Part shown: piece after piece, positions 10,820-24,651 of the stretch
Layout: every line of letters begins with the position of its first letter
Numbering within the stretch: position 1 is the first letter of the stretch
DNA from: Candidatus Campbellbacteria bacterium
GTDB lineage: Bacteria; Patescibacteriota; Minisyncoccia; Phycocordibacterales; JAXHMZ01
Assembly: GCA_034521025.1 (NCBI GenBank)
Contig: JAXHMZ010000005.1
Location: forward strand, 90,352 to 126,795
DNA length: 36,444 nucleotides
Direction: 5' to 3'
Made by a program: the position numbers and the translations under genes
The notes under the pieces: generated by a model
What the model was told of the DNA's origin: nothing
Seen by the model: the letters and a program-made list of their open reading frames with translations, nothing else
Database searches by the model: none

Positions 10820-11018
10820 AGGGGCGATTAGCTCAGTTGGACAAAACAGAATAAAAAGAGATAAGGGCGATTAGCTCAGTTGGATGAAAAGCAAACTGCT
10901 TTGCTTTTCATCCGGTTCTGCGAAGCAGAAACTTCCGTTGTTGAGCGAAGCGAGACAGGAAGTAGGAGGAAGAGTTTACTCTAGCAACTGAGCTAGTACA
11001 AACACTATTAGCGTTTGT
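10820..11018 (+). repeat. 5'-type tRNA-associated palindromic element at tRNA-Val
   Basis: Two truncated copies of the first 20 bases of tRNA-Val (10820-10840 and 10863-10883) precede the real gene. The second copy is followed by a perfect hairpin (GGATGAAAAGCAAA / TTTGCTTTTCATCC, loop CTGC), a TTCTGCGAAGCAGAA hairpin, a stem ACTTCC / GGAAGT containing GAGCGAAGCGA, a GAGTTTACTC dyad, and then TAGCAACTGAGCTAG (10982-10996), the reverse complement of the tRNA-Val D-arm start. A last hairpin (ACAAAC / GTTTGT, 10998-11018) follows. The core is almost identical to the element at 24049-24188 upstream of tRNA-Lys, except where it matches the tRNA. Confidence 0.85.
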
Positions 11019-11053
11019 AAGTCCGAAAAAAATTGTACAATATATAGAAATAG

Positions 11054-11126
11054 GGGCGATTAGCTCAGTTGGTAGAGCAGCTCGTTTACACCGAGAAGGT
11101 CGCAAGTTCAAGTCTTGCATCGCCCA
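11054..11126 (+). tRNA. tRNA-Val(TAC)
   Basis: A 73-base cloverleaf. The acceptor stem GGGCGAT pairs with ATCGCCC and the discriminator is A. The D-arm is GCTC..GAGC, the anticodon loop TTTACAC gives anticodon TAC (GUA codons), and the T-arm is GCAAG TTCAAGT CTTGC. CCA is not encoded. It is the third and only complete copy of its 5' end in this locus. Confidence 0.95.
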
Positions 11127-11143
11127 CAGAGAAATAAATACCA

Positions 11144-11172
11144 AAAAAACCGAGCACAAAGCTCGGTTTTTT
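11144..11172. terminator. Bidirectional terminator between tRNA-Val and the Arg-TCT element
   Basis: AAAAAACCGAGC / GCTCGGTTTTTT with loop ACAAA. It has A- and T-runs on both sides, so it can end the tRNA-Val transcript (plus) and the tRNA-Arg(TCT) plus element transcript (minus). Confidence 0.9.
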
Positions 11173-11178
11173 GTGTGT

Positions 11179-11366
11179 GGTGCTCCCGGGAGGATTTGGT
11201 CACAAGTAAATTTCCTGACGGAAATTTCTCGCGACCCCGCCTCGCGGTGTTCGCCTTTCCTCCGCTTCGCTTCGGAAAACTCACACATCGCTGCGGCTTT
11301 CGATTTCTACACGCAGGCCGAGCAGTCGGCCTGCTCGAAAGCACATCTTTCGCTTCGCTCATTCTG
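11179..11366 (-). repeat. 3'-type tRNA-associated palindromic element at tRNA-Arg(TCT)
   Basis: Read on the minus strand directly after the tRNA: a spacer with GAGCGAAGCGAAAG, then TGTGCTTTCG (complement of the acceptor end), a hairpin GCAGGCCGA / TCGGCCTGC with loop CTGC, then GTAGAAATCG (complement of the T-arm, one mismatch). A 108-base core follows (11306-11199), and the element ends in a degenerate tRNA 3' end (AATCCTCCCGGGAGCACC, 11196-11179). The core is nearly identical to 20245-20352 beside tRNA-Arg(GCG), with compensatory changes in the hairpin around GTCA. Confidence 0.85.
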
Positions 11367-11438
11367 TGCTTCCGGTAGGAATCGAACCTACATTAAGGGC
11401 TTAGAAGACCCCTGTTCTGTCCATTGAACTACGGAAGC
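11367..11438 (-). tRNA. tRNA-Arg(TCT)
   Basis: A 72-base cloverleaf. The acceptor stem GCTTCCG pairs with CGGAAGC and the discriminator is A. The anticodon loop CTTCTAA gives TCT (AGA codons), and the T-arm is GTAGG TTCGATT CCTAC. CCA is not encoded. The anticodon arm and variable region are duplicated 186 bases upstream (11573-11599). Confidence 0.95.
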
Positions 11439-11460
11439 AATATTATCTCTATTTGTTTTT

Positions 11461-11600
11461 CGATTCTACGGAATCGATCATTACATGATCAGTGCAGGTT
11501 GTCGACATTTTACTTCAGGATCTCGCAAAATGTCTGACGAACCTTCTCAAACAGTCCCCCGGACTGTTTTAGCCTACATTAAGGGCTTAGAAGACCCCTA
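11461..11600 (-). repeat. Hairpin cluster with a partial tRNA-Arg(TCT) copy
   Basis: Positions 11573-11599 repeat exactly 27 bases of the tRNA (anticodon arm, variable loop and start of the T-arm, tRNA positions 11387-11413). Between this fragment and the gene lie four dyads: AAACAGTCC / GGACTGTTT (with GG loop), GACATTTT / AAAATGTC, GATCAT / ATGATC and CGATTC / GAATCG. The arrangement of tRNA fragment plus hairpins upstream of the gene resembles the 5'-type elements, but the sequence is different. Confidence 0.7.
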
Positions 11601-11647
11601 AAAGCAGGCACAAAAACAATACCACAAGCTAGCTCGCGCTCAAACCC

Positions 11648-11977
11648 CTATCGTGCCTCTGGAGCCGGATCCGGAGACGATACCTTTTCTAGCAACTCTG
11701 CTTCTCTTTCGGAAAAATCTTTTAGAGTACTTTCTAGAAGTTCCATATCTATTGATTCCGTGATCTCAGAGTCGGCCTCCGGAATTTCAAAAAATCCACC
11801 CTCACTGATCCTGTAAAAAAGGAACCCGTGGAAACCAAGCAGGCAAATATTGAGAAAAATAAACAGCACAAAGATTATCTTCCAGTCACGCTCTGGATTA
11901 ATACCCTGCCTTTTGAGCTTTTGTACAGGCTTTTCTCCGGATGATTTTTTTGTCGAATTAAAGAAAGGCATTTTCAT
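11648..11977 (-). CDS. Small single-pass membrane protein in the pil operon
   Basis: A 109-residue protein with a basic cytoplasmic N-terminus (about 1-32), one transmembrane helix (IIFVLFIFLNICLLGFHGFLF, about 34-54) and an acidic, helical extracytoplasmic C-terminus (LLESTLKDFSEREAELLEKV). It follows the pilO-like gene by two bases and is the last gene of the block. Its position matches that of pilP in other bacteria, but no lipobox or PilP domain is visible, so I leave it unnamed. A pilus alignment-complex accessory role is inferred from context. Confidence 0.65.
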   Translation of the reverse strand: MKMPFFNSTKKSSGEKPVQKLKRQGINPERDWKIIFVLFIFLNICLLGFHGFLFYRISEGGFFEIPEADSEITESIDMELLESTLKDFSEREAELLEKVSSPDPAPEAR

Positions 11978-11979
11978 AA

Positions 11980-12621
11980 TTACTCTTTAACCCTTAAAAC
12001 TTTGGCTGTTAAAGTTAGTTCCCAGGTTTGACCGACCAAAGGCGGAGGCTCTATCTCGCCCTCGCCTTCCGGAGAAGGGGCAGCCTCTTGCCTCGCTGAT
12101 TCGCTCAACTTCAAGTGTACGTTAGATAGCTCTATCACATACGGCATCAGCTCCACAAAAGAAAGAAACTTGTATACAGACTGCCAAGAACCCTCTGCCG
12201 AAATGTCCATTTGCAACCACTCCAGATCATCGGAAGCCGGATGTTCCTCGGGCTTGGATTCTTTCCCTTCTTCGTCAGTAGACACTACCGGCTCCAGGGA
12301 AACGTGCTCATTTATACTGGCGATTTCCATAGATACACCCGCGTCACTTCCGATCGATTCCAGTTCTTCAAAGAATCTCACTAGATTTTCTTCAGAGATA
12401 ATGCGGCTCATCAACTCTTCCCTTTCTTCATCCGTTCTCTCGTATAGCGCTTGAATAGAAGCGCTTCTTTCTTGTTTTCCCAGCTCTTCTGACATTTGCT
12501 CCTTTATCTCTCTTGTTTTCTCGGAGGTATTGCGCACACCCAAGAACACGAACGTATACGCTGACGCGCCTATGATCGTGGCTATTATTACCATTATGAG
12601 AATGTTCCTGGAATAATGCAT
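11980..12621 (-). CDS. pilO: PilO-like type IV pilus inner-membrane protein
   Basis: A 213-residue protein with an N-terminal transmembrane helix (about 7-29), a coiled-coil segment (about 33-75, TREIKEQMSEELGKQERSAS) and a C-terminal alpha/beta domain with FFEELESIGSDAGVSMEIASI and WQSVYKFLSFVELMPYVIEL, the typical PilO ferredoxin-like pattern. PilO pairs with PilN to form the alignment complex linking the cytoplasmic ATPase to the pilus. An acidic insertion (about 112-130) and a Pro/Glu-rich stretch near the end are low complexity. Two bases separate it from pilN, so it is an operon member. Confidence 0.8.
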   Translation of the reverse strand: MHYSRNILIMVIIATIIGASAYTFVFLGVRNTSEKTREIKEQMSEELGKQERSASIQALYERTDEEREELMSRIISEENLVRFFEELESIGSDAGVSMEIASINEHVSLEPVVSTDEEGKESKPEEHPASDDLEWLQMDISAEGSWQSVYKFLSFVELMPYVIELSNVHLKLSESARQEAAPSPEGEGEIEPPPLVGQTWELTLTAKVLRVKE

Positions 12622-12623
12622 GG

Positions 12624-13157
12624 TTAAAATTCTCCGGATATTCTAATGCTGAATTCGATATTTGTAGTTTGAGCTAACTGCTCGGCTGGTACGTTCGTCG
12701 AGGTAAAATTCGGCTGTTGGTCCAAACCGTCCGAAAAAGCGATCAAATCAGACCTGGTTGGCGCAACTCCCGAGACAACAAAAACCGTCTCACCGCTGGA
12801 CCTTTCAAAAGAGAGTTTGTTTACCTCTACATTTTCGGGCTTGGCATCAAGCGCTTCGTCAATGATGCTGGTCGTGGGGTGCCTTTCGCTTTCTCTCTCG
12901 GATATAAAACTAAGCAAGGCCTCGGTACGCTCAAGCTCATTTAAGCTTTCTGTGTCTTCTGCTACCTCAGCTTGCAAAGACTCGAATTCGTTCTGGGCGA
13001 TCCTCTCAGATACCGAGGAGTAGAAATACGATGGCAGAAGCTCGGCGACTCCGAAAACTACTGTTATAAATACGAGGGTTAACGCAATAGCGACAGCCCG
13101 CAGGTAATACTCGTTACGTACAGACCGTTTCTCTTTTGCTGTTAAGAGGTTTGTCAT
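12624..13157 (-). CDS. pilN: PilN-like type IV pilus assembly protein
   Basis: A 177-residue protein with a short cytoplasmic N-terminus (NLLTAKEKRSVRNEYYLR, which contains the NLLP-like motif that binds PilM), a transmembrane helix (about 20-43), a coiled coil (about 55-85) and a C-terminal domain (PENVEVNKLSFERSSGETVFV, VSGVAPTRSDLIAFSDGL). Order pilM-pilN-pilO and the seven-base gap to pilM support the call. It recruits PilM to the inner membrane. Confidence 0.8.
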   Translation of the reverse strand: MTNLLTAKEKRSVRNEYYLRAVAIALTLVFITVVFGVAELLPSYFYSSVSERIAQNEFESLQAEVAEDTESLNELERTEALLSFISERESERHPTTSIIDEALDAKPENVEVNKLSFERSSGETVFVVSGVAPTRSDLIAFSDGLDQQPNFTSTNVPAEQLAQTTNIEFSIRISGEF

Positions 13158-13164
13158 AGTGGTT

Positions 13165-14280
13165 TTATTCCAGAGCTAGACCGATAGCCGCGGCGTAGCT
13201 CAGAGAATCCTCAAAGGTTATACTCGGCACATAGTGCTTGCGAAATGGAACGTTGGACCAGACGTTAGCGAGTGCCGCTTCTATCGAAAAATTATTCTGT
13301 ATATAGGCAGGAAGGCCCTTCATAAGAGCTCCGCCACCGCAAAGTATTACGGCATTTACTCTTTTGGCATGAACTCCTCTTTCATCAACCTGTGAGTGCC
13401 AATAACGAAGCACGTCATTGATCTGTTTGGCCAAAACGTCAAGTTTTTCTTCAGAGGCTTCACTTACTATTCGCGCTTCTTCGTTTTTCCCGGTTAATCC
13501 GCTAGCGTGTTTTCTTTCTTCGGCCTCCTCAAATGATAGGTTGAGTTTGTTCGCGATATGTTCTGTTAATTGGCTCCCTCCTACTTCGGACGTATACGTA
13601 TAACGAGTAACCCCTTCACTAACTATCGATATACCTGTGCGAGCCTTTCCCAGATCCATTATCATATACGTGTCTTTATCGCCCTCCGGCACAACGGCAC
13701 GCGTGATCGCTTCTGCTTCTATGGTTAGAGATATCGGACGTAATCCGGAACGTTTTAATAGTGATATATATGATTCTGAGTGTGTTCTACTGATAGCTGA
13801 AACACGAACGTCTTTATAGGTTTTGTTTTTCTTCTTGTAGGTACGATATATTTTATAGTCAAAAACAATTTCATCTTGAGAAAGCGGTACGTTTTCTTCG
13901 AGCTGCTCTTCTATTTTTTGCCTCATAGGCGTACCCCTTGATACTTCTACCGTAGTCGTAAAAAGGTACGCCTTTTGTTCCGGCAAAGAAGCCTTTACAA
14001 AAATAAAGCGATGTTCGCGTTGCATTTCTGCTACTACTCGCTGCAGGCGAGTAGGATCAAGCACTTCTCCGCCCTCGATTGTTTCTTTAGGTATATCCTT
14101 TGAGGCATAGAAGCCGACTTCATAGGCTCCTGCCGCTTCAAGTAACTCTATCGCTTTTATAGAGTCATCAGAGATGTCAAACCCAAGCGACGCCATGGCC
14201 AGAAAATCAGGTACGGGGAACGCCGAAAAGAAACCTCCTTCTGGCTCTGATAGGATTTGACGATTAAAGGTTCTATACAT
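13165..14280 (-). CDS. pilM: PilM, actin-like type IV pilus assembly protein
   Basis: An actin/FtsA-fold ATP-binding protein of about 371 residues that docks on PilN at the cytoplasmic face. The N-terminus has the phosphate-1 motif LGFDISDDSIKAIEL, later the phosphate-2 motif MIMDLGKARTGISI, and the adenosine motif ILCGGGALMKGL near residue 325. The segment FPVPDFLAMASLGFD matches the CPR-type PilM leader. I chose the ATG at 14280; an in-frame GTG at 14307 would add nine residues, and neither has a strong ribosome site. First gene of the pilMNO block. Confidence 0.9.
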   Translation of the reverse strand: MYRTFNRQILSEPEGGFFSAFPVPDFLAMASLGFDISDDSIKAIELLEAAGAYEVGFYASKDIPKETIEGGEVLDPTRLQRVVAEMQREHRFIFVKASLPEQKAYLFTTTVEVSRGTPMRQKIEEQLEENVPLSQDEIVFDYKIYRTYKKKNKTYKDVRVSAISRTHSESYISLLKRSGLRPISLTIEAEAITRAVVPEGDKDTYMIMDLGKARTGISIVSEGVTRYTYTSEVGGSQLTEHIANKLNLSFEEAEERKHASGLTGKNEEARIVSEASEEKLDVLAKQINDVLRYWHSQVDERGVHAKRVNAVILCGGGALMKGLPAYIQNNFSIEAALANVWSNVPFRKHYVPSITFEDSLSYAAAIGLALE

Positions 14281-14334
14281 TGCTATAAGTATATCGTGAG
14301 ACCGCACTCTCTACAAAGTAACGAGTGTGTACTG

Positions 14335-14664
14335 CTAACTTATCTTAGACCCAGCCGGCACACCGTCATTTGACGGCTCAAGAAGTGAGAAGTTTTCACC
14401 GGCTATAGCAAGTAACATACCCTGGCTCTCCACGCCTCTTATAACGCGGGGCTCTAGATTGAGTACGTACGGAAGTTTCTTCCCTACAATTTCTTCCGGC
14501 TCAAGATACTCCGCCAAACCGGAGACGATTTGCCGTTTCTCCTCCCCAAAATCAACTTCGCAATTTATCAGCTTATCGGTTCCTTCTACGCGCTCGGCGG
14601 ACTTTATCTCACCTATTCGTATATCAAGCTTCTCGAAATCGTCAAAAGTTATATTCTCTTTCAT
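14335..14664 (-). CDS. tRNA-binding OB-fold domain protein (CsaA / MetRS C-terminal type)
   Basis: A 109-residue protein that is a stand-alone EMAP/TRBD-type OB fold. The pattern FEKLDIRIGEIKSAERVEGTD, then RQIVSGLAEYLEPEEIVGK, VLNLEPRVIRGVESQGMLL matches the C-terminal domain of methionyl-tRNA synthetase and CsaA. It probably binds tRNA or structured RNA nonspecifically, either as a detached MetRS domain or as a chaperone-like protein. It overlaps ruvX by four bases (ATGA type), so the two are translationally coupled. Confidence 0.9.
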   Translation of the reverse strand: MKENITFDDFEKLDIRIGEIKSAERVEGTDKLINCEVDFGEEKRQIVSGLAEYLEPEEIVGKKLPYVLNLEPRVIRGVESQGMLLAIAGENFSLLEPSNDGVPAGSKIS

Positions 14665-15065
14665 ATATTTTTATTTTTATCTCTAGAAATATAGCTGTTA
14701 AGTATTATAGCAGCAGCTGAAGCGTCGATCAGTCTATTTTTTTCCAACTCTTCGCCTTGAAGCCGTTTTGCCTCCTCGGAAGTATACATTTCCGGCTCAA
14801 AGTCAACCGGCAGATCCAATTTTCGCCCTATCGTGTCCGCCAATCGGCGAATTTCCTGCATAATTGAATTCTCTTGGCCTTGTCTATCGTGCGATTCTCC
14901 TATTATGATCTTTTCCGCTCCACTACCTTCGATCAGTTCGGTCAACGCACCAAAAAAATGTCGGTCGTTAGCTAACACCGCTTTCGGAAATGCCATAGAA
15001 CCGCCGTCGTCCGTGATGGCAATGCCCACGTTTTTAGTGCCGTAGTCTATGCCGAGTAACTTCAT
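14661..15065 (-). CDS. ruvX: RuvX/YqgF family Holliday junction resolvase-like nuclease
   Basis: A 134-residue RNase H-fold protein. The opening MKLLGIDYGTKNVGIAITDD holds the first catalytic Asp, IIIGESHDRQGQENS the Glu region, and LIDASAAAIILNSY the last catalytic Asp. Family members act in 16S rRNA 5' maturation and possibly recombination. Length and motifs are standard. ruvA and ruvB lie elsewhere in the window (22870 and 32254); no ruvC is present here. Confidence 0.93.
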   Translation of the reverse strand: MKLLGIDYGTKNVGIAITDDGGSMAFPKAVLANDRHFFGALTELIEGSGAEKIIIGESHDRQGQENSIMQEIRRLADTIGRKLDLPVDFEPEMYTSEEAKRLQGEELEKNRLIDASAAAIILNSYISRDKNKNI

Positions 15066-15133
15066 AAAGGCATTCTACAATATTTCGGTTTATGCTCATA
15101 ACAAGCAACTCATTACTTGATGCGGTGGTGTGG

Positions 15134-15139
15134 TATACT
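15134..15139 (+). promoter_or_regulatory. -10 box giving a leaderless HNH-gene transcript
   Basis: TATACT lies seven bases before the GTG start at 15146, so transcription would begin at or next to the start codon. The -35 region is poor. Confidence 0.4.
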
Positions 15140-15145
15140 GGTTGA

Positions 15146-15583
15146 GTGACTGAGCAATACAAAAGAAAGCCGAACATAAAATGTATAGTCTGTGGTTATC
15201 CTGTTTATAGGAGACCTGGTGCAATACAAAAAAGCAAAGGGCGTGTTTTTTGTAGTACGGCTTGTTTTGGCTATGCATGCCGCAAAGAGCAACCGTGTGT
15301 TGTGTGTGGCTCCAAAATTCTAGCTGGTGCACACAAGAAAACCTGTAGCAGAGGTTGCGCAAACACACACCGAGCTGGCATTAAATATAAAATAAACCGC
15401 CCAAGAGATAAGGTACGACATCAAAAATCAATAAGAATTCGATTGATTGAACACAAAGGTGGAGTATGTGAACGGTGTAAACACAATAGAGTGGAAATTT
15501 TGCAGTCCACCACAAGAACAGAGATACAATTAGATGATTTAAGCTACTTGCCGATTGTCACGCGGAAGAACATTTGATAAACA
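15146..15583 (+). pseudogene. HNH endonuclease-like zinc-ribbon protein, 3' half frameshifted
   Basis: Starts with GTG at 15146. It has successive Cys pairs (CIVCGYPVYRRPG, FCSTACFG, PCVVCGSKI, TCSRGCAN) and then GGVCERCKHNRVEILQ. In intact relatives this is followed by VHHK... and a CHAEEH ending. Here the frame derails after EILQ. The next frame reads VHHKNRD, and after a further one-base shift LADCHAEEHL appears at 15558-15580. At least two indels (near 15502 and 15538-15556) therefore separate the pieces of the HNH site. Either the gene is decayed or the consensus is faulty. Free-standing HNH proteins of this type are often mobile. It is divergent from ruvX. Confidence 0.75.
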
Positions 15584-15620
15584 TTACACACAGTGCTAGA
15601 GTAAAAAACTAGCAATTAAT

Positions 15621-15697
15621 GGAGGTGCGGAGATGGTATTCCAGCGGTCTTGAAAACCGTCGCCCTCACGGGCTTGTGGGTTAGTCCACCCTCGCAG
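15621..15697 (+). tRNA. tRNA-Ser(TGA), degenerate or reduced
   Basis: A convincing anticodon arm (GCGGT CTTGAAA ACCGT, anticodon TGA) and a variable-arm hairpin (CCC TCAC GGG) indicate a serine tRNA. The D-arm is short (GGAG ATGGTA TTCC). The T-arm reads GTGG GTTAGT CCAC and lacks the TTCGA loop, and the acceptor pairs only imperfectly (TGCGGAG with CTCGCA). The total of about 77 bases is well below the usual bacterial length of about 90. It may be a pseudogene, a consensus error, or an unusual reduced tRNA. CTGCGAGG, the complement of its 3' end, occurs 55 bases downstream. Confidence 0.5.
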
Positions 15698-15800
15698 ATT
15701 GAAACACAGTCGAATAAACAAAAGGGCCCGCAATGTGCACACATTGCGGGCTGCGAGGCTAGAAGCCGGAGATACTTCAAGCCAAGTGAGAGACTTGGGA
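15690..15800 (+). repeat. 3'-type palindromic element at tRNA-Ser
   Basis: CCTCGCAG at the tRNA 3' end is followed by a spacer, a hairpin with arms GCCCGCAATGTG / CACATTGCGGGC overlapping in the middle (15728-15752), and CTGCGAGG (15750-15757), the exact reverse complement of the tRNA end. A CCAAGT / ACTTGG hairpin (15782-15799) follows. This is the same plan as the elements at Arg and Lys tRNAs, but the core sequence is unrelated. On the minus strand the hairpin is followed by CCCTTTTGTTT, so it could also act as a terminator. Confidence 0.6.
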
Positions 15801-16068
15801 CCAAAGGACTTTTTATTCGCTCGAAATTCGAATGTAACAGAGTTCGGAACCTAAAAAGCCATTAGAATTGATTCACGGCGCCCCAATAACTTTAAATTAG
15901 CTCCAAATTGATACGCTCGACTTCGAACCAAACTAGTGACTTTTGCCGACATGAAAAGCTACTGGAATTAGTCTATAAGGCGCCCCAATAGCTCCAAAAT
16001 AATTCCTTCCAGAAAGTAGCACGCGGTTATTTTTTGTCAACAAATATTTATAAATATAGACAATTGAA
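15801..16068. repeat. Diverged tandem duplication, no gene
   Basis: No coding frame is convincing. Positions about 15816-15905 and 15913-16005 are related: CGCTCGA, TTCGAA, AAAGC..GAATT and GGCGCCCCAATA occur in the same order and spacing in both. GGCGCCCCAATA is exact in both copies (15877-15888 and 15979-15990). Function unknown. Confidence 0.5.
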
Positions 16069-16100
16069 AACCCCATGGAGACCTAAATCTCCATGGGGTT
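16069..16100 (-). terminator. Terminator hairpin, first copy of a duplicated segment
   Basis: AACCCCATGGAGA / TCTCCATGGGGTT with loop CCTAAA. Together with the following 17 bases it is repeated at 17514-17563. The T-run lies on the minus-strand side, but no minus gene ends here, so this copy may be a relic of a duplication. Confidence 0.75.
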
Positions 16101-16240
16101 AATTTATAGCAATGTCGCGTATGAAACTTAGGTTTCAAAGAAGAAAACGACACAATGTAGTTCTTGAATTTTCCACAGTTCCGTGGTTCTATCACGCGAA
16201 AGCGTATATAATACAAGACATTAAAAATAAAGTTTTTACT

Positions 16241-17459
16241 ATGGCAACACCCGAAGTAGAACAATATATTAAAAATGAGCTCGCCCGCGGCACGAGCAGG
16301 TCTGAAATAGAAAGCAACTTGCTTCAAAATGGCTGGAATGACGATGAGGTCGCCCGTGGTTTCAGAGCAGTAGAGACAAGTGAACGGGACAAAGCGCATC
16401 AAGAAGAAGCTCCAAGTCCCTCTTTACCGCATTCAGGCCCAGACTCCGTCCCGGGAGAGAGCGTTTCGCCGGAACCAGGCACCCCTGGCGATTCGAGCGG
16501 ATTTCCCGGCCCATTCGCGCTCCTCAGGGAATCGTTTCGCTATGTCGCCGGAAGATTTTGGACTCTTGTAGGTATACTTCTCATTTTCTTCGTTATCGGC
16601 TTTATCGCGCAACTAGCCATACAGTTTTTCTATGGTATTTCTTTCGCCGTTCTGTTCGGTTTTGCGGGTGATTCTTCTGAAAATGTAGGTGGTGTGTTAA
16701 TGGCCATTGTGGCGCTTGTATCTGTTCTGGGGCTTGCCGCAAGCGTGTTTATTCGGTATTGGAGCACCGGCTCTTTCCTCGCTGGACTACAAAGCAGACA
16801 CCCCTCTATCGGAGACGCCATTAAACGCGGAGCAGGGTTGGCTTGGCCTCTTTTTGTCCTCGGTGTGTTTTCTGCGCTAGTCATTTTAGGAGCAAGTATA
16901 CCGTTTATAATTCCGGCGTTTCTCTTTCTAGTTTGGTTTTCCCTCGCGTACTATATCGCCGTTGAAGAAGACAAGCGTGGTTTCGCCGCTCTAGTCCGAA
17001 GCCGTGAGTATATGCGCGAACGTACATTCGGTGTCTTGGGGAGAACGCTCTTCTTGCTTTGCCCGCCCTTGTTGCCTTCATCCTTGGCGCCGTAACAATT
17101 CCTTTCTATTTTCAGACGGAGGAGGCTTGGACTCTGTAGCCGTCTTAATATTCGTTTTGCTAGCTTTGCTCGTTTCCCTAGCGCTTATTATCTTCTACAC
17201 CTTTGTCGTACCCGCGTATATGTACATTATCTACAAGCACCTAAAACGCTTAAATCCTAACCCGGAACCGGCTTCAGGGCTTCGCCGCTGGTCTATAGGG
17301 CTTTCGATTTGGAGCATAGTTGCTGTAGCTATTGGGTTTACTCTCGGCGCATCTCTCCTTCTCAGCGTCTTTAATCAGCCTAGAGAAATATTTGATATAG
17401 ATCCCACAGGACAAGGAACCGAAATACCGGAAAGTTTTCCCGAACCGGGAGATATATAG
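16241..17459 (+). CDS. UBA-like module plus polytopic membrane protein (two frameshifts)
   Basis: The start ATG at 16241 gives MATPEVEQYIKNELARGTSR, followed by the UBA-like module (EIESNLLQNGWNDDEVARGF) also found at 494 and 29629 on the minus strand. A Pro/Ser-rich linker and several transmembrane helices follow, with a YYIAVEEDKRGFAALVRSRE motif typical of membrane proteins with a repeated helical core (GlpM/DUF975-like). Near 17038 the frame breaks; one extra G in GGGG restores LGENALLALPALVAFILGAV. A second shift at the TTTT near 17113 leads to FSDGGGLDSVAVLIFVLLAL and the end at 17459. With both corrected the product is about 406 residues. A -10 box TATAAT lies at 16207-16212. Confidence 0.72.
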
Positions 17460-17511
17460 ATCTCACTTTCTTTTCTGAAACTGAGCTTCAGACTAACTTA
17501 ATTGTTAGCAA

Positions 17512-17563
17512 AAAGCCCCATGAAGACCTAAATCTCCATGGGGTTAATTTATAGCAATATCGC
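17512..17563 (-). terminator. Terminator of the 17566 gene, second copy of duplicated segment
   Basis: GCCCCATGAAGA / TCTCCATGGGGT with loop CCTAAA, one mismatch in the stem, followed on the minus strand by CTTTTTGC. It directly follows the stop at 17566. The segment TCTCCATGGGGTTAATTTAT and the next bases are shared with the copy at 16069. Confidence 0.8.
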
Positions 17564-17565
17564 GT

Positions 17566-18586: not shown

Positions 18587-18597
18587 TGCACAGTTAA

Positions 18598-18635
18598 GGG
18601 CGCGTCTATATAGTTAGAGCGCCTCTTTGTATTTT
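18598..18635 (+). terminator. Terminator of the 18197 gene
   Basis: GGCGC(G)TCTA / TAGAGCGCC stem with one bulged G, followed by TCTTTGTATTTTT, 12 bases after the stop. Confidence 0.7.
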
Positions 18636-18651
18636 TACTGTCTATAATAGA

Positions 18652-18689
18652 AAATAAATGCTTCAATCTATAGATTGAAGCATTTATTT
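18652..18689. terminator. Symmetric AT-rich terminator
   Basis: Perfect 17-base arms (AAATAAATGCTTCAATC and its complement) around TATA. It works in both orientations and insulates the 18197 gene from the next one. Confidence 0.75.
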
Positions 18690-18806
18690 GGGCTATTTTG
18701 AGCCATTTTACCGCTAAATATTAAATAACCGCTGAATTGGTGCTATAATGGCGAACGAGGGCGTAAAATTTACTTAGATTAGAAACGATAATTGAGATCT
18801 GAACGT

Positions 18807-19462: not shown

Positions 19463-19484
19463 TCCACGCGCTTTTATTTTATAC
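19445..19484 (+). terminator. Terminator overlapping the stop of the DUF7282-like gene
   Basis: AAAAGCGCGCGGAT / ATCCACGCGCTTTT with an A-T rich tip, followed by ATTTTAT. Its overlap with the TGA at 19460 supports the corrected reading frame. Confidence 0.75.
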
Positions 19485-19510
19485 ATATTTCCCGTGGTAC
19501 AATGTTCTCA

Positions 19511-20056
19511 ATGGAAGAAGCACCTAGAGAAGAAGCAGAAGAAAGTAAAGCCAAAAAGCAAAACCCTGAGAACCCTCAGGGAGCCGCGGCGAGAAAAAAC
19601 CGTGTTTTTGAGTGGCAAGCTCCGGAAACCAACTCTCGCGAAAAAAACAGTGATTGGTATTTTGTGCTCTGGACCATAGCACTCGCGGGAGGCGCGGTCG
19701 CCATACTTTTTAACAACATCCTTTTCGGCCTTCTTATCATTATTTCCGCCTTTACCATCTCAATTTACGCCGCGCGAAAACCAAAGATAGTCACATTCAA
19801 CGTATCCAGAAAAGGTGTTAAAGCCGGAGACATTCTACTCCCCTTCTCGAACTTGTCTCATTTCTCTATCGCGGAAGGCGAAGGGTTGACCTATCTTTTA
19901 CTACAATCAAAAAAGGTATTTTCCCCACTCTATTCTTTTCCGATATCTCCTGAAGTGGACTTAGACGAGCTTAGTGATTTTCTAAATCAATTTTTAGAAG
20001 AAGGAAATTTAGAAGTACCTTTTCATCAGAAGATAATGGATAAAGTTGGCTTCTAG
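19511..20056 (+). CDS. Two-helix membrane protein with C-terminal beta domain
   Basis: About 181 residues from the ATG at 19511 (a second ATG at 19502 would add three). The N-terminus is highly charged (EEAPREEAEESKAKKQNPEN), followed by a FEWQAPE motif, two transmembrane helices (about 50-70 and 72-88) and a basic-strand domain (KIVTFNVSRKGVKAGDILLP, LPFSNLSHFSIAEGEG) that resembles a bacterial PH-like fold. Such proteins are common in Parcubacteria but uncharacterised. It stands just upstream of the tRNA-Arg(GCG) locus. Confidence 0.7.
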   Translation: MEEAPREEAEESKAKKQNPENPQGAAARKNRVFEWQAPETNSREKNSDWYFVLWTIALAGGAVAILFNNILFGLLIIISAFTISIYAARKPKIVTFNVSRKGVKAGDILLPFSNLSHFSIAEGEGLTYLLLQSKKVFSPLYSFPISPEVDLDELSDFLNQFLEEGNLEVPFHQKIMDKVGF

Positions 20057-20111
20057 CACCTCTCGTAACTGGAAATTTTAAGGCGATTTTGCTACAGTAG
20101 CTGATGTATTA

Positions 20112-20184
20112 CCTCTCGTCGTTCAACGGATAGGACGCGGGTTTGCGGAACCCGTAATGTAGGTTCGATTCCTACCGAGTAGGA
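20112..20184 (+). tRNA. tRNA-Arg(GCG) with one extra base in the acceptor stem
   Basis: D-arm GTTC..GGAC, anticodon arm CGGGT TTGCGGA ACCCG (anticodon GCG, CGC codons) and T-arm GTAGG TTCGATT CCTAC are all good. The 5' acceptor CCTCTCG expects CGAGAGG, but the gene reads CGAG-T-AGG, with an inserted T at 20180. Two downstream copies of the 3' end (20352-20369 and 20503-20519) carry the expected CGAGAGGA. Confidence 0.8.
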
Positions 20185-20567
20185 GACGTAACTGAGTGAA
20201 GTGGACTCTCGGAGGACGCAAAACTGTTCGGCGTTCGCGTTAGGAATCGAAAGCCGCAGCGATGTGCGAGTTTTCCGAAGCGAAGCGAAGGAAAGGCGAG
20301 CACCGCGAGGCGGGGTCGCGAAAATTTTCCGTCAGGAAAATTATTTGTGACCGATTCCTACCGAGAGGACACGCAACAGAGTGGAGTGGACTCTCGGAGA
20401 AAGCAAACAGTTTTGCTTTCGCTAGGAATCGAAAAGATTGAGCATATCGCACGAAGCGACAAGCGAGTACGATGCGAAATCTATACAGCTCCTGTAAGGA
20501 GAGATTCCTACCGAGAGGACACGAAGCGCAGCGAAGTGTGCTGAAGCTGTGCGTTATCCAATCGAAG
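20185..20567 (+). repeat. 3'-type tRNA-associated array at tRNA-Arg(GCG)
   Basis: Copies of the tRNA 3' end (GATTCCTACCGAG...) recur at intervals of 186 and 150 bases. Each is followed by a spacer ending in CTCTCGG (complement of the acceptor), a hairpin, and TAGGAATC (complement of the T-arm). Unit 1 then carries the 108-base core (20245-20352) shared with the Arg-TCT locus. Unit 2 has the GAAAGCAAA / TTTTGCTTTC hairpin and an AGATT..AATCT stem around a GAG..ATCGC..GCGAG..ACGAT core, then CTCC-TGTAA-GGAG. This core layout matches the array after tRNA-Lys. Confidence 0.88.
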
Positions 20568-20574
20568 ATCTGTT

Positions 20575-20806
20575 TTATAACGCTATCAATCGCCGCCCGG
20601 AAAGCAACACCATTCCTAAAATAAACAAAGTAGACACTATCAGTGTAGTGGCTCCAGTTATTACAAGAATTTTCTCTAGTACGCTCACAGACCTGGCTGT
20701 CTTTCCTCGAGCGAGCCTAGTGACTACGTACACAGCGACAACCAGGAGCAAGGCTGGGAATTAGGTATGCAAAAAGATCTAACCCACGATCTTCATCCAA
20801 TGACAT
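20575..20806 (-). pseudogene. Small two-helix membrane protein, frameshifted
   Basis: The ATG at 20806 reads MSLDEDRGLDLFAYLIPSL. Near 20745-20755 the frame must shift to continue as LLLVVAVYVVTRLARGK and KILVITGATTLIVSTLFILG, ending SGRRLIAL at the TAA 20577-20575. The corrected product has about 77 residues with two transmembrane helices. It lies against the end of the tRNA array. Family not recognised. Confidence 0.5.
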
Positions 20807-20970
20807 ACACAAAACGAGGAGGATATTCATCGCCAGGTAACCACCTAAGCCACTCTGGCAAACAAGGTGTCAAAATCGTGGCACTAGCCGGTGCAGGAAG
20901 AGCGATAAGAAGGTAGATAAACAATAGCTTGGTATACAAATAATTTTTCATGCTTAAAGTATACCTAGAA

Positions 20971-20997
20971 ACCCCACGGAGTCCTGTGGAGTTTTTT
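20971..20997 (-). terminator. Terminator after the decayed membrane-protein gene
   Basis: CTCCACAGGA / TCCGTGGGG on the minus strand, with a T-run on the plus side. The preceding AGTATACCTA and the stem are repeated at 22467-22504, so the 3' ends of the 21046 gene and of rpsT share a duplicated terminator. Confidence 0.75.
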
Positions 20998-21045
20998 CTT
21001 TATGCTCATGAAAACTAAGCCCGTCTGAACAGACAATACGGCGTA

Positions 21046-21677
21046 TTACCTGTTCACTTTGTTTTTGCCAATCTGATACTGTCGATATAAATATATCAGG
21101 AGAAGCATACCAATTTGCCATATTAAAAAGAGAGAAACTCCGCCATCAAATGACGGCAATGGGCCGAAATCGCCATATCCACATGGCTCCCATACGCTAT
21201 GCTGCCCAACAAACCTAGCGCTCCCCCAAAGAACGTGAGGTGGGTTACCGCACGCGACGTCAATGGAATAAAGGGTTTGATTGCAAGAAGAAGCAAGAAA
21301 GCACCAACCGAACCGGCCACAGAAGTTATCAGAAATGGCAGGAGAGACAAAGACAAAATCAGCACGATGCTCCACGCGATCATATAAGCTGTGGTAGATA
21401 CCACAACTGCCAACACCGCCTTGAAGAACGTCATATTGAGAGGTGCATACATACGCACTAGCACCAGGAATACGCCAACAAGCACAAGACCAGGAAAGCC
21501 AAGTGACTGCACGAGAGGCTCAAGCACTGGAACGGAAATGTGACGCGATACGATATCAAAAAATCTTCCTTGGCTCTCTTCTCTTATATACATTCCAATA
21601 CGTAGGAAACGCGCTCAGGAATGCAGAAATACTTCCCCCGAGCACAATGAACAATGTATTGCACGTATGTGTTGCAT
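21046..21677 (-). pseudogene. Polytopic membrane protein, paralogue 1, frameshifted
   Basis: The N-terminus (ATG at 21677, MQHIRAI) and LGGSISAFLSAFPTYWNV lie in different frames. The main frame runs from 21593 (YIREESQGRFFDIVSRHISV) through four hydrophobic segments to about 21170. The C-terminus (GYGDFGPLPSFDGGVSLFLI, then WQIGMLLLIYLYRQYQ) is in a third frame; one missing G near 21172 would join them. The corrected protein is about 210 residues with five or so transmembrane helices. It is paralogous to the next gene upstream (21710-22426). Both copies are damaged, so they may be true pseudogenes. Confidence 0.6.
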
Positions 21678-21709
21678 CAATTTAAATCTATTTTTAGAGA
21701 GGGACATAG

Positions 21710-22426
21710 TCACGATGTACTTTTTATTTTTCTTGCTTTAATTTCATTGCTGGTAAGGAGGGAGCTTTTTTGGTTTGCATAAAAATATATCAGGAGAAGC
21801 ATGCCAATTTGCCAAATAAGAAAGAGGTAAAAATGCGATAAAAACGAATGTGGATAAATCTGGCATTGTGCCTAGTACAGTATATTCAGCTTTCAGATGA
21901 CAGGCCAAATAGGAGCTAGACCCAGCAAATCCTAGTAGTCCGCCAAAAAAGATAAGTTTTGTTACCGTACTTGCGTGTATAAGGAATAAGCTTTTGTAGA
22001 GATATAGATATTAAGGCACAGCACCCACCACAGCCGGCCAGAAAGAACGAAGCCGGAAATGTGAACTATTGCAAAGCTCAATACGGCAACGACCCAGATT
22101 GCGGCTATGAAGTAACCAAGCTGTAGAGCTACCAGTAACACACTGAGTATCTTTAGCAAGGTCCTGCCTTTGCATGCGGAAGCATAAAAAAATAAATAGA
22201 ACTAATGCGATACCAAATACTAGCCCCGGGAGAGACATTGACCAAGATACTGCAATTGCAGTCTCTAACGGGGGCGCGGCTAGAAAAAAACTGTGAAGCG
22301 TGTTCGGAGAAAACCGGCGAATCAATCCTCTCTTATATACTGATTCCAAAAAGACGGAAAGGCGCTAAGAAAAGCAGATAGCGACCCTAAAAGAATTATA
22401 AGTATTACATTTGTTATGTGTCGCAT
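21710..22426 (-). pseudogene. Polytopic membrane protein, paralogue 2, frameshifted
   Basis: The ATG at 22426 gives MRHITNVILIILLGSLSAFL, then SAFPSFWNQYIRED, parallel to paralogue 1. It then shifts to 22349-22150 (LETAIAVSWSMSLPGLVFGI, ALVLFIFLCFRM), to 22159-21962 (MLKILSVLLVALQLGYFIAA), and again to TKLIFFGGLLGFAGSSSYLA and FLIWQIGMLLLIYFYANQ, stopping at 21710. LFLIWQIGMLLLIY is identical in both paralogues. At least three indels are needed. Function unknown. Confidence 0.6.
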
Positions 22427-22473
22427 TTATTTTTTTATTTAAAGAGTAAAGCTATACTTGCTTCAGTATACCT

Positions 22474-22504
22474 AAAAACTCCACAGATTCCTGTGGAGTT
22501 TTTT
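22474..22504 (-). terminator. rpsT terminator
   Basis: AAAAACTCCACAG / CTGTGGAGTTTTTT with loop ATTC, 22 bases after the rpsT stop. It has T-runs on both strands and is a near-copy of 20971-20997. Confidence 0.85.
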
Positions 22505-22526
22505 GTCTAAATATTTGAAGTTTTAT

Positions 22527-22793
22527 TTACGCTTTGGTCTTTTGAATAGATCTCACAATGCGGCTTTTCTTGCGCGCGGCGGTGTTGTCTTTTATAACAC
22601 CTCGCTTCGCCGCTTTATCAATAGCTTTATATGTATCGGCAAGCTTGGCTTCAGCCTCCTTTGCCTTGCCCGCTTCAATTAGTTTACGCATTTCTTTTTC
22701 CGCGTTTTTCATAGCACGCTTCCGGCGCTCGTTGAAAACACGCTTTCTTTCCGAAACGCGTATTGCTTTTTTTGCTCCTCTGGTGATTGGCAT
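22527..22793 (-). CDS. rpsT: 30S ribosomal protein S20
   Basis: An 88-residue basic helical protein. KKAIRVSERKRVFNERRKRA and TAARKKSRIVRSIQ are the usual rRNA-binding helices of S20. It assembles early on the 16S rRNA 5' domain. Single-gene unit with its own terminator. Confidence 0.97.
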   Translation of the reverse strand: MPITRGAKKAIRVSERKRVFNERRKRAMKNAEKEMRKLIEAGKAKEAEAKLADTYKAIDKAAKRGVIKDNTAARKKSRIVRSIQKTKA

Positions 22794-22869
22794 ACGCGGG
22801 TAATACTACAAATTTTTTTAAGAGAACGCAAGCGCTGGCAAGCATATTATGATGCTGTATGATATGGGT

Positions 22870-23439
22870 ATGATAAGAAGCATTAGAGGAGGTGTGATCT
22901 CTGTAAACGATAAGGAGGTTGTGGTGGAATCCGGAGGAATAGGATACAGAGTTTTTATTTCCTCCCATACGTTCAGCTCAATAGCCGAGAAAGAAAGCGT
23001 GAGTTTGTGGACTCACTTGGCGGTAAGAGAAAATTCTTTGGATCTATACGGATTTGCCGATAGCGAAGAGTTAGACTTTTTTGAACTTCTTTTAAATATT
23101 TCCGGCATTGGCCCCAAATCAGCTATGGGTATTTTGAATATCGCTTCCCTAAATGAGCTCAGACAGGCGATCCACGAAAACGATCCTGCGTACTTAACAA
23201 AAGTTTCCGGAATAGGAAAAAAGAACGCACAAAAAATAGTACTTGAACTCAAGGGCAAGATAGGAGAAGCGGAGGCAACTCCAAACGGCTCGCACAAAGA
23301 AGAAGCAGAAGCGATAGAGGCGCTGACAACCCTCGGATATTCAACTCAGGCTGCCCGCGAGATCTTGCGCGAAGTTCCGAAAGACATAACCGAAACCAGC
23401 GAAAGAGTTCGCGCGGCACTCAAAAAACTCGGTTCTTGA
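22870..23439 (+). CDS. ruvA: Holliday junction DNA helicase subunit RuvA
   Basis: About 189 residues. The start is set at the ATG 22870 because MIRSIRGGVISVNDKEVVVE matches the family N-terminus; ATGs at 22849, 22852 and 22864 are less likely. Domain I is the OB fold to about residue 64. Domain II has two helix-hairpin-helix motifs (LNISGIGPKSAMGIL, VSGIGKKNAQKIVLEL). Domain III is the small RuvB-binding domain (EAIEALTTLGYSTQAAREIL). It forms a tetramer on four-way junctions and loads RuvB, encoded at 32254. Confidence 0.96.
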   Translation: MIRSIRGGVISVNDKEVVVESGGIGYRVFISSHTFSSIAEKESVSLWTHLAVRENSLDLYGFADSEELDFFELLLNISGIGPKSAMGILNIASLNELRQAIHENDPAYLTKVSGIGKKNAQKIVLELKGKIGEAEATPNGSHKEEAEAIEALTTLGYSTQAAREILREVPKDITETSERVRAALKKLGS

Positions 23440-23445
23440 TCTACT

Positions 23446-23949
23446 CTATTGAGCCGAGAGCGCGTAAATAGCTATCGCGGCTGCGCTCGCGACGTTAAAC
23501 GATTCTTTTTTACCCCAAATCGGTATCTCTACTATCGTATCCGCCGCTTTTATGAACTTTTGGTCTACACCCTCGACTTCGTTTCCTACTACTAAAGCTA
23601 TGTTCTCTTTCTTTTGCTTAGAATAGCGAAGATCTCGTATATCAATTGCTCTTTTGTCTTGCTCCAGAACCAATAGCTCTTTCTCCTCTCTTCTAAGTGT
23701 TTCTATCACCTCCTGTGTCTTGCCAATTCGCCGCCAAGGAATTGAGTCTTCTGCTCCTAGCGACACTTTGCCGAAGTCGTTCCTCTTTCTTTCAAAGCGA
23801 TCCAGAGGTCCTGGTGTATATCCGGAGACGACTATCTCCCCCACACCAAACGCTTCAGCCGTACGAAAAATAGCACCTGTGTTAAGTACGCTTCTAATAT
23901 CGTGAAGAACAAGAGATACGTTAGAGAGAGGAGGCATTGTTGTTTTCAT
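23446..23949 (-). CDS. SpoU/TrmH-family RNA 2'-O-methyltransferase
   Basis: A 167-residue knotted methyltransferase that uses S-adenosylmethionine. Motif 1 is DIRSVLNTGAIFRTAEAFG with the catalytic Arg, motif 2 is IALVVGNEVEGVDQ, and motif 3 is IPIWGKKESFNVASAAAIA. No N-terminal L30-like domain, so it is of the short TrmL/TrmH kind; the substrate (tRNA or rRNA) cannot be told. Convergent with ruvA, six bases apart. Confidence 0.93.
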   Translation of the reverse strand: MKTTMPPLSNVSLVLHDIRSVLNTGAIFRTAEAFGVGEIVVSGYTPGPLDRFERKRNDFGKVSLGAEDSIPWRRIGKTQEVIETLRREEKELLVLEQDKRAIDIRDLRYSKQKKENIALVVGNEVEGVDQKFIKAADTIVEIPIWGKKESFNVASAAAIAIYALSAQ

Positions 23950-24006
23950 TGTTTATGATTGTAAAGAGTAAAAAACAAATTACAAGCGACCTTGCAGACG
24001 ATGAAC

Positions 24007-24034
24007 TTGCGTGCAGCGCAACAATTAGTATAGT
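24007..24034 (+). promoter_or_regulatory. Upstream copy of the tRNA-Lys promoter
   Basis: TTGCGT, 16 bases, TATAGT. The segment 24022-24057 is repeated with three changes at 24212-24247, so the promoter and the tRNA 5' end are duplicated about 190 bases apart. Confidence 0.6.
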
Positions 24035-24048
24035 AATAGAGACATAAA

Positions 24049-24188
24049 CGCCCCGTTGCTCTGCTGGATAAAACACAAACTGCTTTGTGTTTTATCCGGT
24101 TCTGCGAAGCAGAAACTTCTGTTGTTGAGCGTAGCGAAACAGGAAGTAGGAGGAAGAGTTTACTCTAGCAGCTGAGCGCAATAGGGGC
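24049..24188 (+). repeat. 5'-type tRNA-associated palindromic element at tRNA-Lys
   Basis: A truncated tRNA-Lys 5' end (CGCCCCGTTGCTCTGCTGG) leads into hairpin GGATAAAACACAAA / TTTGTGTTTTATCC (loop CTGC), then the TTCTGCGAAGCAGAA hairpin, ACTTCT / GGAAGT around GAGCGTAGCGA, GAGTTTACTC, and finally CAGCTGAGC...GGGGC (24168-24188), the complement of the tRNA-Lys 5' end. The core equals the element at tRNA-Val apart from a few bases. The first hairpin differs from that of Val on both arms in a compensating way. Confidence 0.88.
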
Positions 24189-24196
24189 TTATGGGT

Positions 24197-24224
24197 TTGC
24201 GCAGAATAGAGCAATTAGTATAGT
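24197..24224 (+). promoter_or_regulatory. Proximal tRNA-Lys promoter
   Basis: TTGCGC, 16 bases, TATAGT, with the start of transcription expected about eight bases before the tRNA. It is the second copy of the promoter at 24007-24034; both look functional. Confidence 0.65.
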
Positions 24225-24239
24225 AATAAAAACATAAAT

Positions 24240-24312
24240 GCCCCGTTAGCTCAGCTGGTAGAGCAGTTGCCTCTTAAGCAAACGGCCCTAGGTTCGAGTC
24301 CTAGACGGGGCA
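24240..24312 (+). tRNA. tRNA-Lys(CTT)
   Basis: A 73-base cloverleaf. The acceptor GCCCCGT pairs with ACGGGGC and the discriminator is A. The anticodon loop CTCTTAA gives CTT (AAG codons), and the T-arm is CTAGG TTCGAGT CCTAG. CCA is not encoded. Flanked by palindromic elements on both sides. Confidence 0.95.
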
Positions 24313-24618
24313 CCGAGAAAAGCGAGGTGACACGGAGAAAGCAAACGATTTTGCTTTCGACTAGGACGAGAAAAGGTCGAGTAGATCGCGCGGAGCTCTG
24401 CGAGCACGATTTGAGACCTGTACCGAATCTGTAAGATTCGAGTCCTAGACGGGGCACCGAGAAAAGCGAGGTGACCGGAGGCAACGATTTTGCTTCGACT
24501 AGGACGAGAAAAGGTCGAGTAGATCGCGCGGAGCTCTGCGAGCACGATTTGAGACCTGTACCGAATCTGTAAGATTCGAGTCCTAGACGGGGCACCGAGA
24601 AAAGCGAGGTGACACGGA
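24313..24618 (+). repeat. 3'-type tRNA-associated tandem array at tRNA-Lys
   Basis: The tRNA 3' end (TTCGAGTCCTAGACGGGGCA, from 24293) recurs at 24437 and 24575, spacings 144 and 138. Each unit has CACC / GGTG around GAGAAAAGCGA, a GAAAGCAAA / TTTTGCTTTC hairpin (shortened in unit 2), CTAGGAC (complement of the T-arm), a GGTC / GACC stem around a 30-base core, and GAATC-TGTAA-GATTC running into the next tRNA end. The two repeats are nearly identical outside the hairpin. Confidence 0.9.
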
Positions 24619-24651
24619 GAAAGCAAACGATTTTGCTTTCGGCTCTTTTTT
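24619..24651 (+). terminator. Terminator of the tRNA-Lys array
   Basis: The last copy of the GAAAGCAAA / TTTTGCTTTC hairpin is followed by GGCTCTTTTTT, so the element's own hairpin serves as the terminator of the tRNA transcript. Confidence 0.8.

What the first reader, a model, noticed from the sequence alone, without database searches (positions are those of the whole stretch)
10820..24651. A family of palindromic elements built from and customised to adjacent tRNA genes
All five tRNA loci (Val, Arg-TCT, Ser, Arg-GCG, Lys) carry the same plan: a truncated copy of the tRNA's own end, one or more strong hairpins, then the reverse complement of that tRNA end. Elements at different tRNAs share cores (5'-type: Val and Lys; 3'-type: Arg-TCT and Arg-GCG; array units: Arg-GCG and Lys), while the arms match only the local tRNA. 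Motifs with GCGAAGC recur at most copies; the DNA heptamer d(GCGAAGC) is known to form an unusually stable mini-hairpin, which would suit a single-stranded DNA intermediate as in REP/IS200-type elements. I know of no described family with tRNA-complementary arms. Alternatives are RNA devices controlling tRNA processing, or expansions by template switching.
Basis: partly seen in the sequence, partly recalled or inferred. Interest (0 to 1): 0.93.

Follow-up and report, generated by a model that had tools for sequence, protein, structure and literature searches.

The report
Palindromic elements copying tRNA gene ends
In one order of ultra-small bacteria, many tRNA genes are followed or preceded by small folded DNA units that end in an exact copy of that tRNA's own end, which looks like an undescribed family of tRNA-anchored, probably mobile, palindromic elements whose enzyme is unknown.

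Summary
Four of the five named tRNAs exist here (no tRNA-Ser was found). In the host genome 15 of 33 tRNAs have a downstream copy of the tRNA's 3' end. Over 78 loci the copy is positions 57-73, 96-100% identical at each position, with a sharp edge at N73. The copy is the 3' arm of a branched palindrome: RC(73-66), hairpin H, RC(65-57), core, then 57-73. The core covaries strongly (24 of 24 pairs compensated in 126 sequences). It occurs in 34 of 60 families of the order (Paceibacteria; Nomura-, Kaiser-, Zambryski-, Taylorbacteria) and only in that order among 192 genomes sampled across the phylum. All 31 host-genome cores lie beside tRNAs, in tRNA orientation. Local tRNAs match and other tRNAs do not (63/147 versus 13/1470). 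The window's 5'-type is a second unit that inserts after G19 of tRNA D-loops, and once inside another unit. Congeners differ in occupancy. Best reading: DNA-level, tRNA-loop-targeted foldback elements, perhaps recombining as folded attC-like sites. No dedicated recombinase was found: Xer is ubiquitous, Cas1 absent, Y1 absent from this genome. An RNA role is not excluded.

The parts
10822..10840 (+). outer truncated copy of tRNA-Val nt 1-19
   Evidence: exact 19-nt match at -232
10865..10883 (+). second truncated copy of tRNA-Val nt 1-19, 5' arm of the type-D unit
   Evidence: exact 19-nt match at -189
10882..10970 (+). type-D unit (hairpin with AAACTGCTTT-type loop, two further hairpins, TAGGAGGA end)
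   Evidence: R2 106.1 bits; DNA fold z -6.84
10979..10995 (+). reverse complement of the tRNA-Val D-arm
   Evidence: (I13)
11054..11126 (+). tRNA-Val (TAC)
   Evidence: Rfam/ARAGORN
11180..11309 (-). type-A unit on the 3' side of tRNA-Arg-TCT
   Evidence: 90% identical (inverted) to 20241-20370 (I1)
11367..11438 (-). tRNA-Arg (TCT)
11469..11557 (-). type-C core on the 5' side of tRNA-Arg-TCT, following a copy of tRNA nt 26-52
   Evidence: R1 23.3 bits, E 1.1e-4
11573..11599 (-). copy of tRNA-Arg-TCT nt 26-52
   Evidence: exact 27 nt
20112..20183 (+). tRNA-Arg (GCG); its own acceptor 3' strand has an extra T
   Evidence: 47 bits
20241..20251 (+). RC of the T-arm (nt 53-63), unit 1
20252..20352 (+). 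type-A core, unit 1
20353..20369 (+). direct copy of nt 57-73 (acceptor strand intact), end of unit 1
20423..20433 (+). RC of the T-arm, unit 2
20425..20509 (+). type-B core, unit 2
   Evidence: R1 97.5 bits
20503..20519 (+). second direct copy of nt 57-73
24022..24065 (+). displaced copy of the tRNA-Lys leader plus 5' end
   Evidence: 92% over 36 nt with 24212-24247 (D12)
24066..24154 (+). type-D unit
   Evidence: R2 104.7 bits
24163..24177 (+). RC of the tRNA-Lys D-arm
24240..24312 (+). tRNA-Lys (CTT)
24331..24358 (+). hairpin H, unit 1
24364..24446 (+). type-B core, unit 1, including RC(T-arm)
   Evidence: R1 99.1 bits
24440..24456 (+). direct copy of tRNA-Lys nt 57-73
   Evidence: 20-nt exact match, nt 54-73
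24502..24584 (+). type-B core, unit 2
   Evidence: R1 99.1 bits
24578..24594 (+). second direct copy of tRNA-Lys nt 57-73
24595..24641 (+). third trailer and hairpin H (partial unit)
   Evidence: D1, D7

Best explanation
These are small non-coding foldback (palindromic) DNA elements that use tRNA genes as landing sites. The 3'-type unit folds into RC(73-66), hairpin H, RC(65-57), core and 57-73, so its stem is a double-stranded copy of the local tRNA's nt 57-73. The direct copy marks the old tRNA end displaced behind the unit, and the tRNA stays intact. The 5'-type (type D) unit inserts after G19 in the D-loop of a tRNA copy. Most likely the units move or recombine as folded single-stranded DNA: the stem supplies the duplex attachment site that must match the tRNA, as in integron attC sites, and an enzyme acts in trans. 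Shown: anatomy, exact copy, order-wide family, local matching, changing occupancy, a nested insertion, DNA-like pairing. Inferred: the folded-ssDNA step, the trans-acting enzyme, the direction of displacement.
For: Copy is nt 57-73 in 78 loci with sharp edges. Local tRNA versus other tRNAs 63/147 versus 13/1470. RC(66-73) enriched: 32/124 at >=7/8 versus 5.9 expected. 34/60 families, named members. 24/24 pairs compensated; G.T:A.C mismatches 44:27 against 96:4 in tRNA stems. Congeners G013/G061 differ in occupancy; the Arg-TCT site is orthologous (score 141 against 22 shuffled) and empty in G061. Type-D unit inserted inside a type-A unit (Ser-GCT versus Ser-CGA in G061). Host contig C2 lacks the Phe unit that C1 has. 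Phe in C1 carries the Lys-CTT end. tmRNAs are used too. Gene-bearing intervals between tRNA-Ser and its displaced end. Type D in 21/60 families, mostly in tRNA D-loops.
Against: No candidate enzyme: Xer is usually single-copy with or without units, Y1 is absent from the host, and Cas1 occurs in only 4 of 60 genomes, none with units. Only two gene-bearing arrays were seen. One core was conserved between congeners at Glu-TTC although the direct copy was lost, so some units persist vertically. No circular intermediate, read or expression data. A customised stem is not explained by simple transposition; it needs target copying or gene conversion. The strand signal is not fully symmetric (G.T slightly exceeds A.C).
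Confidence: 0.5

Rival explanations
1. RNA device: the unit is transcribed with the tRNA and its RC arm and distal T-arm copy compete for the tRNA's T-arm, controlling folding, 3' processing or termination.
For: Strong conserved secondary structure, fixed orientation relative to the tRNA, copy ends exactly at N73, tmRNA included.
Against: G.T pairs are rare (about 2%) and A.C mismatches are nearly as frequent, unlike tRNA stems. At least 21 of 74 units lie behind a terminator-like hairpin. Occupancy differs between congeners and about half of tRNAs lack units.
Confidence: 0.15
2. Template-switch or tandem-duplication scars: tRNA hairpins provoke inverted and direct duplications of tRNA ends, and quasi-palindrome correction keeps the arms perfect.
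For: All stems are near-perfect Watson-Crick palindromes (H stems 1029 WC of 1079 cells); tRNA fragments of several sizes occur (nt 26-52, 1-36, 22-73).
Against: The same cores recur at unrelated tRNAs and in 34 families; constant 57-73 boundary; discrete insertion of a type-D unit.
Confidence: 0.13
3. Ordinary attL/attR scars of tRNA-targeting integrative elements or gene-bearing islands using a tyrosine recombinase, without any folded site.
For: 3'-end direct repeats at tRNAs and tmRNA are classical for integrases (general knowledge); gene cargo behind two tRNA-Ser genes.
Against: No integrase gene in the units; usually one housekeeping Xer-type gene per genome; the RC arms, the conserved core and the D-loop units are unexplained.
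Confidence: 0.12
4. REP/IS200-type elements mobilised by a RAYT/Y1 transposase acting on single-stranded hairpins.
For: Weak association of Y1 presence with unit presence across 60 genomes (27/34 versus 12/26, Fisher p 0.013).
Against: Host genome has none; 20 Y1 loci carry different palindromes and no R1 core; only one type-D unit near a Y1 fragment.
Confidence: 0.07

Closest known systems
Integron attC sites and cassette arrays (e.g. PMC2727003, PMC3053210)
   Same: Imperfect palindromes that fold as single strands; outer stem mimics a duplex recombination site; arrays of units after one fixed site; a few gene-bearing units.
   Different: No intI or cassette platform; the stem sequence is the local tRNA's nt 57-73, different at every locus; many sites per genome; most units have no gene.
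REP / BIME / REPIN with RAYT (PMC3116915, PMC8266576, PMC3733652)
   Same: Short non-coding palindromic DNA units in many copies, possibly mobilised in trans.
   Different: Stems customised to the neighbouring tRNA, multi-branch units of roughly 110-180 nt, no Y1 transposase in the host genome.
MITEs
   Same: Non-autonomous, inverted repeats; G041 relatives have a fixed 20-bp terminal repeat.
   Different: tRNA-type units have no fixed terminal repeat; their arms are the local tRNA sequence.
tRNA-targeting integrative elements (tyrosine integrases)
   Same: Direct repeat of the tRNA 3' end beyond the insert.
   Different: Units about 140 nt, no integrase gene, internal RC arm and conserved core, D-loop counterpart.
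Casposons
   Same: Target tRNA 3' ends and leave short direct repeats (general knowledge).
   Different: Cas1 is missing in the host and in every unit-bearing genome searched.

Membership tests
Integron / attC | imperfect palindrome with complementary ends and inner hairpins | tested here: met
   folds and covariation
Integron / attC | dedicated integron integrase beside the array | tested here: not met
   Xer-type PF00589 genes, usually one per genome, with or without units; the two in the host (C5:162970, C3:19380) are not in the window
Integron / attC | recombination on one folded strand | not testable with these tools
   needs experiment
REP/RAYT | Y1 (RAYT) transposase in the genome | tested here: not met
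   host genome 0 hits, 31 cores
REP/RAYT | transposase gene flanked by the same palindromes | tested here: not met
   20 Y1 loci: no R1 core; their own palindromes differ
MITE | fixed terminal inverted repeat shared by all copies | tested here: not met
   arms follow the local tRNA; met only for non-tRNA relatives in G041
MITE | non-coding, multi-copy, insertion polymorphism | tested here: met
tRNA-targeting integrative element | direct repeat of the tRNA 3' end | tested here: met
tRNA-targeting integrative element | integrase gene in the element | tested here: not met
   units of about 140 nt without genes
Casposon | Cas1-family integrase | tested here: not met
   PF01867 in 4/60 genomes, none with units
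Known structured RNA (Rfam) | match to a curated family | tested here: not met
   no unit in the window matched at E <= 1 apart from the tRNAs and one sub-threshold match on a tRNA antisense strand

The most novel reading that the evidence does not exclude
A tRNA-anchored, integron-like recombination system in Paceibacteria: each tRNA (and tmRNA) gene serves as its own attachment site, and cassettes carry folded single-strand sites whose stem is a duplex copy of that tRNA's nt 57-73, re-templated to each new tRNA, with D-loop units as a second target class.
Probability: 0.25. Interest if true: 0.95.

Novelty: new variant of a known kind. Interest (0 to 1): 0.82.

Why it matters
If right, tRNA genes in a whole order of reduced-genome bacteria are the home of an undescribed element family that rewrites its arms to match each host tRNA. 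It would make testable how elements can use essential tRNA loops without destroying them, how reduced genomes still move DNA without recognisable transposases, and whether folded single-strand recombination exists beyond integrons. It also warns annotators: tRNA fragments and repeated tRNA ends in these genomes are not assembly errors.

Tried and rejected
Viral carriers: two core patterns and one type-D pattern gave no true hit in viral contigs; the single match lies inside a viral reading frame and has no R1 support. Phage and plasmid collections: no match. Tyrosine recombinase: present nearly everywhere, no correlation. Cas1: absent from unit-bearing genomes. Y1/RAYT: weak correlation only, different palindromes. 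Retrocopy of mature tRNA: only 10 of 74 distal copies are followed by CCA, so copying from CCA-tailed tRNA is unlikely. Assembly artefact: units occur in dozens of independent genomes, including two whose contigs are 693-705 kb long (RAAC4_OD1_1, GWD2_36_14). Literature: no description found in five completed searches of the open library on this subject; one search returned only REP/RAYT and unrelated work; queries 42 and 75 failed on syntax.
Full report
WHAT IS THERE. The window is part of a 686-kb, 5-contig genome (C5:90352-126795) of the order to which named carriers of the same core belong (Candidatus Nomura-, Kaiser-, Zambryski- and Taylorbacteria and other Paceibacterota). The window holds four tRNAs, not five: Val-TAC, Arg-TCT, Arg-GCG and Lys-CTT. 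No tRNA-Ser was found.

Around each tRNA lie truncated copies of its own ends, hairpins and reverse-complement (RC) arms.

GENOME-WIDE PATTERN. I took all 33 tRNAs of the genome with flanks and compared each with its own surroundings. Fifteen have a downstream copy of their 3' end; five or six have an upstream copy of nt 1-19. A covariance model of the array core (R1) finds 31 places in the genome. All lie beside tRNAs in the tRNA's orientation, 30 downstream and one on the 5' side of Arg-TCT. A model of the 5'-type unit (R2) finds five, all upstream of tRNAs.

WHAT IS COPIED. Over 78 tRNA or tmRNA genes of this and related genomes, the distal copy matches the local gene at 96-100% at every position from 57 to 73. 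Identity falls to about 0.6 by position 75 and to 0.45-0.6 just upstream of 54. The 54-56 triplet appears to belong to the unit: it pairs in the last hairpin (GAATC-TGTAA-GATTC and variants). The median distance from N73 to the copy is 137 nt. The last 22 nt of the tRNA are found at >=19/22 in its own downstream 700 nt in 63 of 147 cases, against 13 of 1470 for other tRNAs (p about 1e-58). These relatives were fetched because they hold a core, so the rate is not a genome-wide rate; the own-versus-other contrast is not affected.

ARCHITECTURE. Between the tRNA and the copy the order is: trailer, RC of 73-66, hairpin H, RC of 65-57, core, copy of 57-73. RC(57-65) matches at >=8/9 in 47 of 124 units against about 5 expected. 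RC(66-73) matches at >=7/8 in 32 of 124 against 5.9 expected (p about 5e-14). So the whole unit is a branched palindrome whose outer stem is the tRNA's T-arm and acceptor 3' strand; the acceptor part is often imperfect. Folding of a Lys unit as DNA or RNA gives this structure (z about -3.1). The Val 5' unit gives z -6.8.

STRUCTURE IS CONSERVED, AND LOOKS LIKE DNA. In 126 distinct cores, 95.8% of cells are paired, all 24 pairs show compensatory change, and slid or shuffled controls collapse (the alignment was fitted to the model, which favours it). In helices P2-P4 there are 2198 Watson-Crick cells, 44 G.T and 27 A.C. tRNA acceptor and T stems of the same genomes have 96 G.T and 4 A.C (Fisher p 2e-8). 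Hairpin H stems are nearly perfect (1029 WC, 13 G.T, 2 A.C). An RNA under selection should tolerate G.T and not A.C. The weaker skew here fits selection or correction at the DNA level. It is not proof: a G.T excess remains.

DISTRIBUTION. R1 is found in 34 of 60 genomes, one per family of the order, and in only 3 of 192 genomes drawn across the phylum, all in the same order (stricter filters). Two tmRNA genes carry clear copies, and a third, in RAAC4_OD1_1, has a core right behind it. R2 is found in 21 of 60.

MOVEMENT. (1) Congeners G013 and G061 have copies at 17 of 44 and 8 of 25 tRNAs, and same-anticodon tRNAs often differ. At Arg-TCT the downstream genes are orthologous (score 141, shuffled maximum 22), with a unit in one and none in the other, though the tRNA ends also differ. 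(2) In G061 the Ser-GCT and Ser-CGA units are the same, except that Ser-GCT has a type-D unit inserted inside it. (3) Host contigs C1 and C2 share a roughly 78% identical segment in which the Phe gene has a unit in C1 and none in C2. The C1 unit ends in the 3' end of Lys-CTT, not Phe, as if it came from the Lys locus. (4) At three host tRNAs a type-C core sits inside a type-B core at the same point. (5) Behind two tRNA-Ser genes in other families, genes lie between the tRNA and its displaced end: a short-chain dehydrogenase in G035; a Zn-ribbon protein and a DUF6671 protein in G040. (6) Some units decay or persist: the Glu-TTC core is conserved in both congeners while the copy is lost in one.

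TYPE D AND THE TWO LOOPS. Type D lies after G18-G19 of tRNA D-loops: in a second tRNA-Ile copy in G026, in a second tRNA-Thr copy in G013 and G061, and before Leu, Ser, Glu and Gln genes. In about a third of the 20 places inspected it sits in other units or plain intergenic DNA. So the two classes use the two loops: after G19 (D) and before 57 (T). These are the two halves of the tRNA elbow; that remark rests on general knowledge of tRNA structure and is only suggestive.

RELATIVES AWAY FROM tRNAs. In G041 an R1-like apex occurs in at least four palindromes (L259-L262), away from tRNAs. In the two where both ends were matched, the terminal repeat is a perfect 20 bp (AGAGCCTATCTCCAATCTAA...TTAGATTGGAGATAGGCTCT). 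The apex is therefore a module of a wider foldback family, and the tRNA type is its customised form.

MECHANISM. The best reading is a DNA foldback element that lands in tRNA loops and leaves the tRNA intact, with the old end displaced behind it. The stem being a duplex copy of the tRNA's own 57-73 suggests recombination of a folded strand with the tRNA site, as integron attC sites recombine with a duplex partner (compare PMC2727003, PMC3053210, abstracts only). This would explain why arms match the local tRNA, why arrays have 57-73 between units, and why a few units hold genes. It does not explain how arms change when a unit reaches a new tRNA; target copying or gene conversion must be assumed.

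ENZYME. None was found. PF00589 is present, usually once, in 58 of 60 genomes regardless of units. PF01867 is in 4, none with units. PF01797 is in 39, weakly associated (p 0.013), but absent from the host at the cut-off used and flanked by other palindromes where examined.

VERDICT. A real, order-wide and apparently undescribed element family; mechanism open. Confidence in DNA-level tRNA-anchored mobile foldback elements is 0.5, and in the integron-like special case 0.25.

Noticed in passing
window 16067-16120 and 17512-17565: 54-nt repeat (94%) with terminator-like hairpins flanking ORFs 16112-17095 and 17004-17459 (D6).
   Followed up: no
window 18652-18689: Perfect 19-bp palindrome; a similar hairpin follows the displaced copy of tRNA-Thr-TGT on contig C4.
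   Followed up: no
window 20112-20183: tRNA-Arg-GCG has an extra T in its acceptor 3' strand (CGAGTAGG) while both distal copies keep the intact strand (CGAGAGG) that pairs with its 5' end.
   Followed up: partly
L259-L262 (G041): MITE-like palindromes with a 20-bp terminal repeat and an R1-like apex, away from tRNAs.
   Followed up: partly
L191 1-14001 minus strand (G035): Array behind tRNA-Ser with full antisense copies of the tRNA 3' end, repeated promoter-like segments and foreign-looking genes.
   Followed up: partly
L362-L381: RAYT-like Y1 genes in Paceibacteria flanked by their own short palindromes, e.g. TTGGACATCGGATGTCCAACA and ACTTGGAGGTTGAACCTCCAAGT.
   Followed up: partly
L122 1573-2119 (RAAC4_OD1_1); L135; L173: tmRNA genes also carry the unit at their tRNA-like 3' end.
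   Followed up: partly
host contig C2 versus C1:71069-75378: 10-kb contig about 78% identical to a C1 segment (Arg-CCT and Phe tRNAs duplicated); a paralogous segment or a second strain.
   Followed up: partly
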